NCBI GenBank assembly: GCA_030018315.1
Contig: JASEGA010000002.1
Coordinates: 62,001-126,000, forward strand
Source of the DNA: a bacterium
GTDB lineage: Bacteria; Hydrothermota; UBA3073; JACQXS01; JAGMCI01
Reading direction: 5' to 3'
DNA length: 64,000 bases
In this document: piece after piece, positions 12,677-16,135 of the stretch
Layout of the letters: every line of letters starts with the position of its first letter
Numbering within the stretch: the first letter of the stretch is position 1
Made by a program: the position numbers and the translations under genes
Notes under the pieces: generated by a model
Database searches by the model: none
Told to the model about the DNA's origin: nothing
The model's input: only the letters and a program-made list of their open reading frames with translations

Positions 12677-12747
12677 CTCGAGGGGATGGATTCGAACCAC
12701 CATTAATGGCTCCAAAGGCCACTGTCCTGCCATTAGACGACCCTCGA
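12677..12747 (-). tRNA. tRNA-Gln (anticodon TTG)
   Basis: A 71-base cloverleaf on the minus strand. The acceptor stem TCGAGGG/CCCTCGA is perfect. The anticodon arm is GTGGC-CTTTGGA-GCCAT with anticodon TTG, which reads CAA. The T loop is TTCGAAT. A U1-A72 first pair is usual for tRNA-Gln. CCA is not encoded. It sits between spoVG and prs. Confidence 0.95.
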
Positions 12748-13108: not shown

Positions 13109-13951
13109 TCACTTGCCACTGCTATTAACTGCATTTACAAGTTTAACATCAAGACCTATAAATTTCTTATTAAGTTTTATATCTCTTTCCTGTAAAATTC
13201 CGTAAACACAAGAACCACTGCCAGAGAGTGAAGCCCCTAAGGCACCTAATTTAAGTATATTCTCTTTTATTTCTTGCAATTTGGGATAAGTCTGAAATAC
13301 CAATTGCTCAAAGTCATTATAAAGATTTTGGCTCAACTCCTTAATATTCCCGTTTAAAATAGCATTTTTTGAAATCTTAAAGTTACATCGCTCTTTTGTC
13401 AAGTAATTTTTTACCTCCTTATAAGCCCATGCAGTAGAAATAGAAAATTTGGGGTAAACTAAAATAAACCAGAGAGGTGCTTCTAAATGGGGGAGAGGCG
13501 TTATAATATCACCTCTTCCTTTTATAAATGCTATACCACCTTTAAGAAAGAATGGAACATCAGAACCTAGTTCTAATGCAAGCTTAAAAAGAGCATCGTA
13601 ACTCAAAAGATTGCCAAAAAGATTGTTTAATCCAACAAGCGTCTTAGCTGCACAGGAACTACCACCACCTAAACCGGCACCAATCCAGATTTGCTTTGTG
13701 AGGTTGATTTTGACGCCAGTTTTAATACGCATTCGTGTTAGAAAGAGATTAGCGGCTTTAAAACACATATTCTCTTTACCATATGGAGGACAATTAGATG
13801 AAAAATCAATTCCATGGCTATTCTTAGAAATCTCAAGTTCGTCAAAAAAATTAATAGTCTGCATAATAGTCTCAATATTATGATACCCATCAGGTCTCTC
13901 ACCTACAATTTTAAGCCCCAAATTTACTTTAGCATAAGCTTTAAGTAACAT
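13109..13951 (-). CDS. ispE: 4-diphosphocytidyl-2-C-methyl-D-erythritol kinase
   Basis: A GHMP kinase of the MEP isoprenoid pathway. The 280 residues show the start AYAKVNLGLKIVGERPDGYHN and the GHMP ATP loop IWIGAGLGGGSSCAAKTL. The C-terminal GASLSGSGSCVYGI completes the fold. No other MEP genes are in the window. It begins the conserved ispE-spoVG-tRNA-prs-rplY order. Only a weak -10 box (TATAAA) is seen just before the ATG. Confidence 0.95.
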   Translation of the reverse strand: MLLKAYAKVNLGLKIVGERPDGYHNIETIMQTINFFDELEISKNSHGIDFSSNCPPYGKENMCFKAANLFLTRMRIKTGVKINLTKQIWIGAGLGGGSSCAAKTLVGLNNLFGNLLSYDALFKLALELGSDVPFFLKGGIAFIKGRGDIITPLPHLEAPLWFILVYPKFSISTAWAYKEVKNYLTKERCNFKISKNAILNGNIKELSQNLYNDFEQLVFQTYPKLQEIKENILKLGALGASLSGSGSCVYGILQERDIKLNKKFIGLDVKLVNAVNSSGK

Positions 13952-13987: not shown

Positions 13988-14389
13988 TTAAGATAGCCAA
14001 TTTTCAAGCTTTAGCCCTTGAATTCTATGAAAATCAGCGTCATCTGAAACAAGGATCAAGTTACTGGTTTTTGTTGTGGAAGCAATTAAAATATCCGCAT
14101 CTTCAATAAGTTTTCCTCTCTGTTGCAAATTTGCGTAAATTTCCGCAGCTTCGTCAAAAACAGACTGAGTATCTAATAAAATCAAACCAAATTTTTTACA
14201 AAGTATATGAAATTTCTCTAACTGTGATGTAGCTTTAGCAGCCAAAAGACCTCTTTTTATTTCATAGTAACTTATTCCATTTATATAAATTTCCTCCCCT
14301 TCTATCACAACTCTTTGGACTTTTCTTTTGACTTTTTCATCTCCTTTTAATATTGCTGTAATGATATTTGTATCAAGCACATATGTCAT
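13988..14389 (-). CDS. PIN-domain protein, VapC-like toxin
   Basis: 133 residues. It carries the PIN acidic residues: the YVLDTNIITAIL start, the central YYEIKRGL and the C-terminal EDADILIAST and SDDADFHRI. VapC toxins are ribonucleases cutting tRNA or rRNA. Its ATG overlaps the stop of the 85-residue gene upstream by four bases, the usual layout of a toxin behind its antitoxin. Confidence 0.85.
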   Translation of the reverse strand: MTYVLDTNIITAILKGDEKVKRKVQRVVIEGEEIYINGISYYEIKRGLLAAKATSQLEKFHILCKKFGLILLDTQSVFDEAAEIYANLQQRGKLIEDADILIASTTKTSNLILVSDDADFHRIQGLKLENWLS

Positions 14390-14643
14390 TTAAAAAGAGA
14401 CCTACGTTTCACTGCTTCCTCAAAAGTTTCCCTTTGTTTGGGAGATAACTCATCTAACATACCAAAAACAGTCTCTAATACATCGAGCTTTTCGAATAGA
14501 GAAACAAGGTTGCTAACTACCTTTGTATTTTCAAAGATATGTGGAATAGTATTATTCCATTCCTTCAACATTTGTTTTTCGAAACTACTAAACTCCTTTA
14601 TCTCTTTTTTATTATAGATTTTTCCTACCTGTGCTATTGGCAT
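14386..14643 (-). CDS. Putative antitoxin partner of the PIN protein
   Basis: 85 residues, mostly charged and helical, with no recognised antitoxin DNA-binding motif. It is called an antitoxin only by position: directly before and overlapping the PIN gene. It ends one base before the TIR gene's stop codon region, so TIR, this gene and PIN form one tight cluster read leftward. It might instead belong with the TIR protein. Confidence 0.5.
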   Translation of the reverse strand: MPIAQVGKIYNKKEIKEFSSFEKQMLKEWNNTIPHIFENTKVVSNLVSLFEKLDVLETVFGMLDELSPKQRETFEEAVKRRSLFK

Positions 14644-14644
14644 T

Positions 14645-15118
14645 TCAATCCTTTTTCAAAGAATAAAGGAATAATAAAATTAGTCCACCAACCAAAAATC
14701 CTGTAAGAAGATCCTGAGTTTTTTTATCTTGTATTAACCGTTGAATCCTCTGGGATACTTCTGATATTGTACTCAAAGGATTACTACGATTTATTACAAT
14801 TTTTTTACAAGAAGAATTAATTGGAACCTTAGCATCAGCCACTAAAAGAAGAGGTTTACGAGGCGTTAAATTTTGACCATAAACAACTTCTGTATTAACC
14901 CATTGAGAATGATGTCCTTCTTGGCTGGCTATGGCAATTATATAGTTTGCCTTTTTTATTTCCTTTTTAATATCTTCGGGAACGACATTATCTGGCTTCC
15001 AATCTCTGCGGGGGATAAAAGGAACTGCCCCCCGCCGGGCTACTTCTTCAGCCATTGCATCTACTAAAGCAAGCTCCCTTGGTGCTACACTATGACTGAT
15101 AAAAATCCTAATTGACAT
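14645..15118 (-). CDS. TIR-domain protein with C-terminal membrane anchor
   Basis: 157 residues. Residues 1-110 look like a TIR domain: RIFISHS near the start, PFIPRRDW in the BB-loop region, YIIAIASQ, then QWVNTEVVYGQ with W73 and E77 in the W-x3-E arrangement of catalytic TIR NADases such as SARM1. A single hydrophobic helix (about 137-153) near the C-terminus would tether it to the membrane. Bacterial TIR proteins often act in anti-phage defence by depleting NAD. That role here is inference. The gene is tightly followed by the 85-residue and PIN genes. Confidence 0.72.
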   Translation of the reverse strand: MSIRIFISHSVAPRELALVDAMAEEVARRGAVPFIPRRDWKPDNVVPEDIKKEIKKANYIIAIASQEGHHSQWVNTEVVYGQNLTPRKPLLLVADAKVPINSSCKKIVINRSNPLSTISEVSQRIQRLIQDKKTQDLLTGFLVGGLILLFLYSLKKD

Positions 15119-15137
15119 TCTGATACTTTTGCCTCTA

Positions 15138-15318
15138 TCAACTTATCTCTTCTTTCTGTTTTGGTTTTTTAAACACAGCTATAGGAATACCGATAGCTAT
15201 AAATATACATCCTATAAAACCTATTATCAATCCCTTTGTTTTTGCTCTCTCAAACTTAATAAGTTGCTCAAAACCTTCTATTATCTCGAGTACATCGTGT
15301 GGAGTTAACCTCTTTCAT
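15138..15318 (-). pseudogene. Small membrane protein ORF with a one-base frameshift
   Basis: From 15138 upstream the minus strand encodes TPHDVLEIIEGFEQLIKFER, a hydrophobic helix GLIIGFIGCIFIAIGIPIAV, and a basic tail. An ATG at 15318 encodes MKE in the neighbouring frame, and dropping one G from GAGG would join the two. It starts inside the end of the next small ORF and ends 20 bases before the TIR gene, so it may be part of that cluster. Confidence 0.4.
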
Positions 15319-15475
15319 TCCTCAAATCCATATTCCTCAAATCTGCTTTTGTAACTGCTATGGCTTCATTTATATCACAACCCAACACATTTTTTACCAT
15401 TAATCTCTCTAGGTAGTTTAAAATACCCAAATAAACTCCACTGACTATCAGTATCAGTACTCCTATTTTTATCAA
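15305..15475 (-). CDS. Small single-helix membrane protein
   Basis: 56 residues from a TTG start with a GAGG ribosome site eight bases before it. The N-terminus is a hydrophobic helix (IGVLILIVSGVYLGILNYL) and the rest is charged and polar. It is too short for family recognition. It heads the leftward run that continues through the frameshifted membrane ORF to TIR and PIN. Confidence 0.4.
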   Translation of the reverse strand: MIKIGVLILIVSGVYLGILNYLERLMVKNVLGCDINEAIAVTKADLRNMDLRNERG

Positions 15476-15532
15476 ATTTAATCCTCTTTTTCTCCCTTTT
15501 TCCTAAAAATTGTACAGTATAAATCCAAAATG

Positions 15533-16135
15533 TCAATCTTTTTCTCTCGTTATCTCTGTTTCAACTATTTCACATATTATGTGTCCGATAAGAATATGAG
15601 CTTCCTGAATCCGTTGTGTATTAGAAGAAGGGACTTTTATTCCAATATCTACGAGCTTCACAAGTTTATCACCTTTCTCACCTGTTAGTCCAATTGTATA
15701 AATACCTATAGATTTAGATACTTCTACTGCTTTAATTATATTTGGTGATTCACCTGAAGTTGAGATTGCAATTAGGACATCGCCTTTTTTGCCAAGTGAT
15801 TCAATTTGTCGCGCAAAGACAATGTCAAATGAAGTATCATTCGGGATAGCTGTTAAAAGCGAGGTGTTTGTTGTAAGTGCAATAGCTGGAAAACTTTGCC
15901 TTTCTTTTTGTAATTTTGCAACAAATTCGCAAGCAAGATGCTGAGAATCTGCTGCTGACCCTCCATTACCACAGAGAAGAATTTTTTTGCCCTGCCTTAA
16001 AGCCTTAAGCACAATGTTTGTTGCCATTCCAATTTCAACTGTTTTTTTCTTTAATAGTTCTTTTGTACGAATACTTTCATCTATTATTCTTAAAACTTCA
16101 CGCTTATAATTTTGCATTTTCTTTGATGTATTCAT
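15533..16135 (-). CDS. gmhA: Sedoheptulose 7-phosphate isomerase
   Basis: First step of the heptose pathway for the lipopolysaccharide core. The 200 residues have the SIS-domain motif LLCGNGGSAADSQHLACEFV, the T-N-T-S-L-L-T loop, and ISTSGESPNIIKAVEVSK. The late RIQEAHILIGHIICEIVE segment is typical of GmhA. It overlaps the end of rfbD by 32 bases. Later heptose genes are not in the window. Confidence 0.92.
   Translation of the reverse strand: MNTSKKMQNYKREVLRIIDESIRTKELLKKKTVEIGMATNIVLKALRQGKKILLCGNGGSAADSQHLACEFVAKLQKERQSFPAIALTTNTSLLTAIPNDTSFDIVFARQIESLGKKGDVLIAISTSGESPNIIKAVEVSKSIGIYTIGLTGEKGDKLVKLVDIGIKVPSSNTQRIQEAHILIGHIICEIVETEITREKD

What the first reader, a model, noticed from the sequence alone, without database searches (positions are those of the whole stretch)
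13988..15475. Compact TIR-membrane / PIN toxin patch with tiny membrane ORFs
Between ispE and gmhA sits a tight leftward run: a 56-residue membrane ORF, a frameshifted membrane ORF, a 157-residue TIR protein with the W73-x3-E77 catalytic pattern and a C-terminal membrane helix, an 85-residue unknown and a PIN toxin. Spacing is 1-20 bases or overlapping. A membrane-tethered minimal TIR next to small membrane proteins and an RNase toxin is not a layout I recognise from described defence systems. It might be a candidate two-effector (NAD and RNA) defence or abortive-infection unit.
Basis: partly seen in the sequence, partly recalled or inferred. Interest (0 to 1): 0.55.

Follow-up and report, generated by a model that had tools for sequence, protein, structure and literature searches.

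The report
Mix-and-match TIR/RNase antitoxin module
A small genetic cassette pairs a membrane-anchored immune-type (TIR) protein with an RNA-cutting toxin through a short bridging antitoxin, and relatives in distant microbes swap either partner while keeping the matching half of the bridge, which points to an undescribed plug-and-play defence layout.

Summary
The TIR gene, the 85-residue gene and the PIN gene are real and form one unit; the two tiny membrane ORFs are not shown to belong. The unit interrupts a gmhA-ispE pair that is adjacent in 10 of 12 relatives examined. The same TIR-small gene-PIN trio recurs in a Brocadiales genome with other flanking genes (L019). The 85-residue protein is best read as a bridging antitoxin. 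Its C-terminal tail follows the toxin: 41 of 43 pairs with the same toxin but another partner are alike, against 0 of 47 with the same partner but another toxin. In two partner classes its N-terminus follows the upstream partner: 11 of 12 TIR-B pairs with different toxins and one DUF4209 pair. Upstream partners include membrane TIR, TIGR04255 and DUF4209-HEPN proteins; downstream toxins include several PINs, MazF and HEPN. Each family is known; this swappable layout was not found in the papers searched. For the window's own TIR class the N-terminal link is weak (z 3.3).

The parts
14645..15118 (-). membrane-tethered TIR protein (157 aa; W73, E77; C-terminal hydrophobic helix): upstream partner
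   Evidence: Pfam TIR_2 38.5 bits against cut-off 28; E77 invariant in 9 of 9; C-terminal hydropathy; 61% identical TIR in L019
14386..14643 (-). 85-aa bridging antitoxin/adaptor: variable N-part, conserved C-terminal tail
   Evidence: no family match above cut-off; tail shared with the PIN-A loci; tail follows toxin
13988..14389 (-). PIN RNase (VapC-like, 133 aa), toxin
   Evidence: Pfam PIN 57.4 bits; VapC models; D6, E43, D97, D99, D117 invariant in 9 of 9; solved VapC relatives
14386..14514 (-). part of the adaptor gene that codes the toxin-specific tail (last 42 residues, as cut, and the stop codon)
   Evidence: z above 5 in 35 of 35 pairs between different PIN-A partner classes
15509..15536 (-). 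promoter-like site TTGACA-16-TACAAT just past the gmhA stop codon (consensus match only)
   Evidence: 11 of 12 positions; 11 sites found in the region against 7.3 expected
15138..15475 (-). two open stretches in different frames (56-aa membrane ORF and a second membrane stretch); probably a decayed or unrelated gene, not shown to belong
   Evidence: absent in L019

Best explanation
This is a horizontally moving three-gene toxin-antitoxin cassette in which a small antitoxin bridges two proteins. Its C-terminal tail holds the downstream VapC-type RNase inactive; its N-terminal part docks on the upstream partner, here a short TIR protein anchored in the membrane. I think it most likely that the three make a standby complex at the membrane, and that a signal of infection sensed at or by the TIR frees the RNase, which stops translation, with the TIR acting as a second (NAD-consuming) effector or as the trigger. 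Shown: gene order, recurrence, swapping of toxins and partners, tail-toxin match. Inferred: binding, joint inhibition, trigger, NADase activity, phage defence.
For: Same trio in another phylum with other flanks. All 10 genomic loci of this PIN type (window plus L013-L021) have adaptor and an upstream partner gene: TIR 2, TIGR04255 7, DUF4209 1. In a TIR clade 58-91% identical to its first row, the toxin changes between three PIN types and MazF while the adaptor keeps its N-domain and changes its tail. DUF4209 does the same: L197 and L204 share the adaptor N-part and differ in tail and PIN. L109 pairs a TIR of the window's clade with the adaptor C-part and HEPN otherwise seen with TIGR04255. 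The L153 adaptor tail matches, 48% over 50 aa, the antitoxin next to a VapC on a cyanobacterial plasmid. A later search in a new phylum gave one strong member, again TIR-adaptor-HEPN, its TIR broken by a stop.
Against: No binding or activity was tested. N-domain and partner could travel together by linkage if recombination simply swaps tail plus toxin. For TIGR04255 and for the window's TIR clade no N-part similarity is seen across different toxins, and between window and L019 it is weak (z 3.3; 6 of 500 shuffles as high). 12 of 24 short membrane TIRs have no such neighbours. TIGR04255 is not a known toxin or sensor. The structure model of the TIR failed (mean pLDDT 42).
Confidence: 0.6

Rival explanations
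1. Ordinary two-gene VapBC that happens to follow a TIR gene; co-transcription only.
For: PIN is a clear VapC relative with an overlapping upstream small gene; toxin-antitoxin pairs often land in defence-rich places (recalled).
Against: 10 of 10 genomic loci of this PIN type carry an upstream partner gene, overlapping or within 5 bases except in L018, whose frames are broken; the TIR trio recurs in another phylum (L019); TIR-B adaptors keep one N-domain through four toxin types.
Confidence: 0.15
2. The TIR is the sensor or stabiliser of the antitoxin, as the SecB-like chaperone is in toxin-antitoxin-chaperone systems; only the RNase kills. (A version of the bridge model, so its probability overlaps with it.)
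For: The slot is filled by unlike proteins (TIR, TIGR04255, DUF4209), as expected of exchangeable sensors; CmdTAC works this way (PMC11618068, passages seen).
Against: Two of the three partner classes, TIR and the HEPN-family DUF4209 (PMC3710099, passages), look like enzymes, and E77 is kept in 9 of 9. TIGR04255 did not give a clear fold match.
Confidence: 0.35
3. N-domain and partner stay together only by linkage: recombination inside the adaptor gene swaps tail plus toxin, and the N-domain serves dimerisation or DNA binding.
For: Would give the same match of N-domain to partner; antitoxins are known to be modular (PMC10440598, passages).
Against: The N-part differs between partner classes even with the same toxin (PIN-A set); no DNA-binding family was found in it (DUF2283 just over cut-off in L096).
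Confidence: 0.25
4. The unit is decayed and inert in this genome.
For: Broken frames just upstream; broken members elsewhere (L099, L018, L020, L095, L205, L211).
Against: All three window genes are intact with catalytic residues kept.
Confidence: 0.1

Closest known systems
VapBC type II toxin-antitoxin
   Same: PIN RNase with a small gene just upstream, overlapping by ATGA; toxin-specific C-terminal tail
   Different: a third gene stands upstream in all 10 genomic loci seen; antitoxin N-part is not a recognised DNA-binding domain
Toxin-antitoxin-chaperone (TAC, e.g. CmdTAC)
   Same: three genes, antitoxin with a toxin part and a part for a third protein
   Different: third protein is TIR, TIGR04255 or DUF4209, not a SecB-like chaperone; extra part is N-terminal; gene order partner-antitoxin-toxin
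Panacea/NetFlax modular antitoxins
   Same: one antitoxin domain combined with many toxins through exchangeable tails
   Different: no Panacea domain; the constant part here goes with a third gene
Thoeris ThsB / short TIR defence proteins
   Same: weak TIR similarity (PADLOC ThsB 9.5e-6)
   Different: no ThsA-like gene beside it; neighbour is a toxin-antitoxin pair

Membership tests
VapBC type II toxin-antitoxin | PIN domain with conserved acidic residues | tested here: met
VapBC type II toxin-antitoxin | small antitoxin gene just upstream, coupled | tested here: met
   4-base overlap; same in L013-L021
VapBC type II toxin-antitoxin | antitoxin with a known DNA-binding N-domain | tested here: inconclusive
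   no Pfam, NCBIfam or PADLOC match above cut-off; a divergent one is not excluded
VapBC type II toxin-antitoxin | toxicity neutralised by the antitoxin | not testable with these tools
   needs a bench test
TIR NAD-consuming effectors | TIR domain with catalytic glutamate | tested here: met
   profile reaches AbTIR NAD hydrolase; the glutamate column aligns with E in the five solved TIRs shown
TIR NAD-consuming effectors | NAD cleavage | not testable with these tools
   needs an assay
Toxin-antitoxin-chaperone (TAC) | SecB-like chaperone gene | tested here: not met
   third gene is TIR
Thoeris | ThsA effector beside ThsB | tested here: not met
   flanking genes scanned are of ispE, spoVG, gmhA, rfbD and rfbA type
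Panacea antitoxins | Panacea domain | tested here: not met
   no such Pfam match in the 85-aa protein

The most novel reading that the evidence does not exclude
A two-headed antitoxin restrains two killers of different kinds at once: a membrane TIR NAD-consuming enzyme through its N-part and an RNase through its tail. Both slots are freely exchanged across bacteria and archaea, making a general combinatorial immune platform in which one small protein is the switch.
Probability: 0.3. Interest if true: 0.82.

Novelty: new variant of a known kind. Interest (0 to 1): 0.62.

Why it matters
If right, it links NAD-consuming TIR immunity and RNase toxin-antitoxin modules in one switch, explains why TIGR04255 and DUF4209 genes of unknown role sit beside RNase toxins, and gives a directly testable answer to how such toxins are triggered. 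It also offers a simple rule (match the tail to the toxin, match the N-part to the partner) for finding more systems.

Tried and rejected
Tiny membrane ORFs as parts: no family above cut-off, no plasmid match for the second stretch, absent before the TIR of L019. Close TIR relatives in genome contigs by peptide patterns: none confirmed. TIR in plasmids, phages and viral contigs: none. PIN in plasmids at 1e-25: none. PHROGs: PIN matches a family of unknown function at 1e-19, TIR one at 9e-5. Flanking repeats at the insertion: only short, chance-like ones. Base composition of the insert: 32-36% G+C, near its surroundings, so no sign of foreign origin. TIR structure model: failed, not used. TIGR04255 model (mean pLDDT 74): no SecB fold among the matches shown (absence is not a test); best second-look matches are arginine/creatine-kinase type domains, Z 9.2, rmsd 4.2, 187 residues, Foldseek's best are TBP-like; inconclusive. 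PIN-A tree: too weakly resolved to count partner swaps. MazF-type tail of L127: one weak plasmid match, E 0.03, with no MazF seen beside it, so that tail link rests on the neighbouring MazF alone. Literature: searches found no description of the layout; passages of PMC9503650 did not show it either. The library lacks most subscription papers and all preprints.

Full report
What is there. On the minus strand between gmhA (15533-16135) and ispE (13109-13951) lie a 157-aa TIR gene (14645-15118), an 85-aa gene one base later (14386-14643) and a 133-aa PIN gene overlapping it by four bases (13988-14389). TIR and PIN are over Pfam's cut-offs; the 85-aa protein has no match above cut-off. The window belongs to the phylum that holds a candidate division WOR-3 genome: G071, listed as 'same phylum', carries the locus L009, whose 3,366 31-mers all occur in L018, a record titled WOR-3.

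The unit is an insertion. Of 12 ispE loci examined in relatives (12 of the 19 loci other than the window's own that one search returned), 10 have gmhA directly before ispE (its end within 92 bases of the ispE start, or overlapping), one has another gene there (L228) and one lacks gmhA (L231); none has the module. A promoter-like site lies just past gmhA. No clear flanking repeat was found and base composition is not unusual.

The trio recurs. A scan of genome contigs with the PIN found 9 loci at 60-77% identity (L013-L021); the next of the 80 kept is at 39%. They lie in records titled Thermodesulfovibrionales, Chloroflexi, Altarchaeum, WOR-3, Brocadiales, Spirochaetota and Hydrothermarchaeota, plus two titled only 'bacterium'. 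With the window these are 10 loci (L008 and L009 are L014 and L018 again). In all 10 a small gene with the same C-terminal tail overlaps the PIN start by four bases, and a third gene stands before it: TIR in 2 (window, L019), a TIGR04255 protein in 7, a DUF7380-DUF4209 protein in 1. Families were scanned for L013, L014, L016 and L019; L018's partner was found by the TIGR04255 model (as G071) although its frame is broken; L015, L017, L020 and L021 rest on alignment with L013 and L016. L020 has a stop in its PIN. In L019 the TIR is 61% and the PIN 66% identical to the window's, and the gene before the TIR is an unrelated amidohydrolase-like one (named from reading), so the shared part is exactly TIR, small gene, PIN. 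L019's TIR scores 24.2 bits to TIR_2, under the cut-off of 28. Host names come from record titles.

The TIR family. Profile searches of three phylum samples and of nine genomes reached through loci (147, 9, 343 and 345 genomes) gave TIR loci; I took 89 into a test, of which 3 repeated the same ORF and were dropped, leaving 86 (L094 and L110, repeats of L003 and L099, were left out before). Short TIRs with a hydrophobic C-terminus: 24. An RNase toxin ORF lay in the locus of 11 of the 24 and in 0 of the 62 other TIRs (Fisher p 1e-7, uncorrected; on the tree presence of the adaptor needs only 2 changes, so kinship explains much of that figure). A PIN profile built without the TIR-linked toxins still found 9 of the 9 PINs and no other ORF. 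The 11: window and L116/L019 (PIN-A), L004, L096, L097, L098 (PIN-B), L126, L153 and L117 (three further PINs), L127 (MazF), L109 (HEPN). L095 keeps only the adaptor. The remaining 12 of 24 have neither adaptor nor toxin in view, among them L103, whose contig ends 184 bases after the TIR. The toxin type names PIN-A to PIN-G and TIR-A, TIR-B are my labels.

Swapping, seen from the TIR side. Eight TIR-B proteins form one clade (97/92 support), 58-91% identical to the first row. Behind them stand PIN-B (4), PIN-C, PIN-D, MazF, or only the adaptor. The TIR-B adaptor N-domain is shared; it reaches DUF2283 just over cut-off (23.3 against 23 bits) in L096, and 2 of 8 members match it at E 1 or better. 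L098's adaptor is the odd one out (z 1.0 against L127).

Swapping, seen from the partner side. In the window's phylum TIGR04255 has 15 matches in 14 of 147 genomes: 8 are followed by an adaptor and a HEPN-like gene, 2 by an adaptor and a PIN, 2 by two genes of unknown kind, 1 by none, and 2 are cut by contig ends. HEPN calls are below Pfam's cut-off and rest on similarity to L109's protein, which PADLOC's HEPN_IX matches at 8.5e-5. DUF4209, a HEPN family according to PMC3710099 (passages), has 8 matches in 7 of 147 genomes: L197, L200 (= L014) and L204 (partner end only, at a contig edge) have adaptor plus PIN, L198 ends there, and L199, L201, L202, L203 do not.

The bridge. I took 28 adaptors (26, plus L197 and L204) and compared N-parts and C-parts separately by local alignment against shuffles. 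C-parts: z above 5 in 41 of 43 pairs with different partners and the same toxin, in 0 of 47 with the same partner and different toxins, and in 0 of 247 with neither. N-parts: 12 of 47 with the same partner and different toxins, 2 of 43 with different partners and the same toxin, 0 of 247 with neither. Moving the cut to 35 or 50 residues hardly changes this (tails 41 of 43 at each cut; 0, 0 and 1 of 47). The N-part result comes from TIR-B (11 of 12 pairs) and DUF4209 (1 of 1); none comes from TIGR04255 or from the window's TIR clade, where window and L019 give only z 3.3. The labels were mine and the pairs are not independent. One tail is independently tied to a plain VapBC: the L153 tail matches the antitoxin beside a VapC on an Allocoleopsis plasmid (48% over 50 aa).

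A later check. A search of 390 further genomes, made after the pattern was seen, gave one match better than 1e-21: L211 (4e-35), again TIR, HEPN-type adaptor and HEPN, with a stop in the TIR; two weaker short TIRs (L212, L221) have no toxin, and L213 has a PIN-like ORF before, not after, its longer TIR frame.

How it may work. The best-supported reading is a three-gene toxin-antitoxin unit whose small protein holds the RNase by its tail and the partner by its N-part. Release on infection would stop translation; the TIR would add NAD loss or act as the trigger. The catalytic residues are kept, and solved relatives include NAD hydrolases and VapC nucleases, several named tRNA(fMet)-specific. Which residues are catalytic is recalled, except that D6 and E43 are named for a PIN toxin in PMC10440598. 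Binding, inhibition, trigger and phage defence are inferred.

Known systems. TAC systems (PMC11618068, passages) share the three-part logic but use a SecB-like chaperone. NetFlax work on modular antitoxins (PMC10440598, passages) describes exchangeable tails in gene pairs; the term TIR does not occur in its main text. No paper in the library holds TIGR04255. I therefore call it a new variant of a known kind, not a new kind.

Noticed in passing
L187 and L192, downstream of TIGR04255 genes: TIGR04255 followed by a 161-aa gene and a further gene of unknown kind: possibly another toxin type.
   Followed up: no
L013:2902-3645: TIGR04255 model resembles arginine/creatine-kinase type domains (Z 9.2, rmsd 4.2, 187 residues) or TBP; inconclusive.
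   Followed up: partly
L205:3756-4453: IMG/VR contig with an adaptor tail and a broken PIN-A but no partner gene: a relic suggesting transfer by viruses.
   Followed up: partly
L099, L211, L018, L020, L095: Broken TIR, partner or PIN genes, or a lost toxin: the modules decay often.
   Followed up: partly
window 12677-12747: tRNA gene between prs and spoVG on the minus strand.
   Followed up: no
L002 (own genome, contig 6, 68605-68967): A second PIN match in the same genome with an in-frame stop.
   Followed up: no
L213: A PIN-like ORF stands upstream of a longer TIR gene, the reverse order.
   Followed up: no
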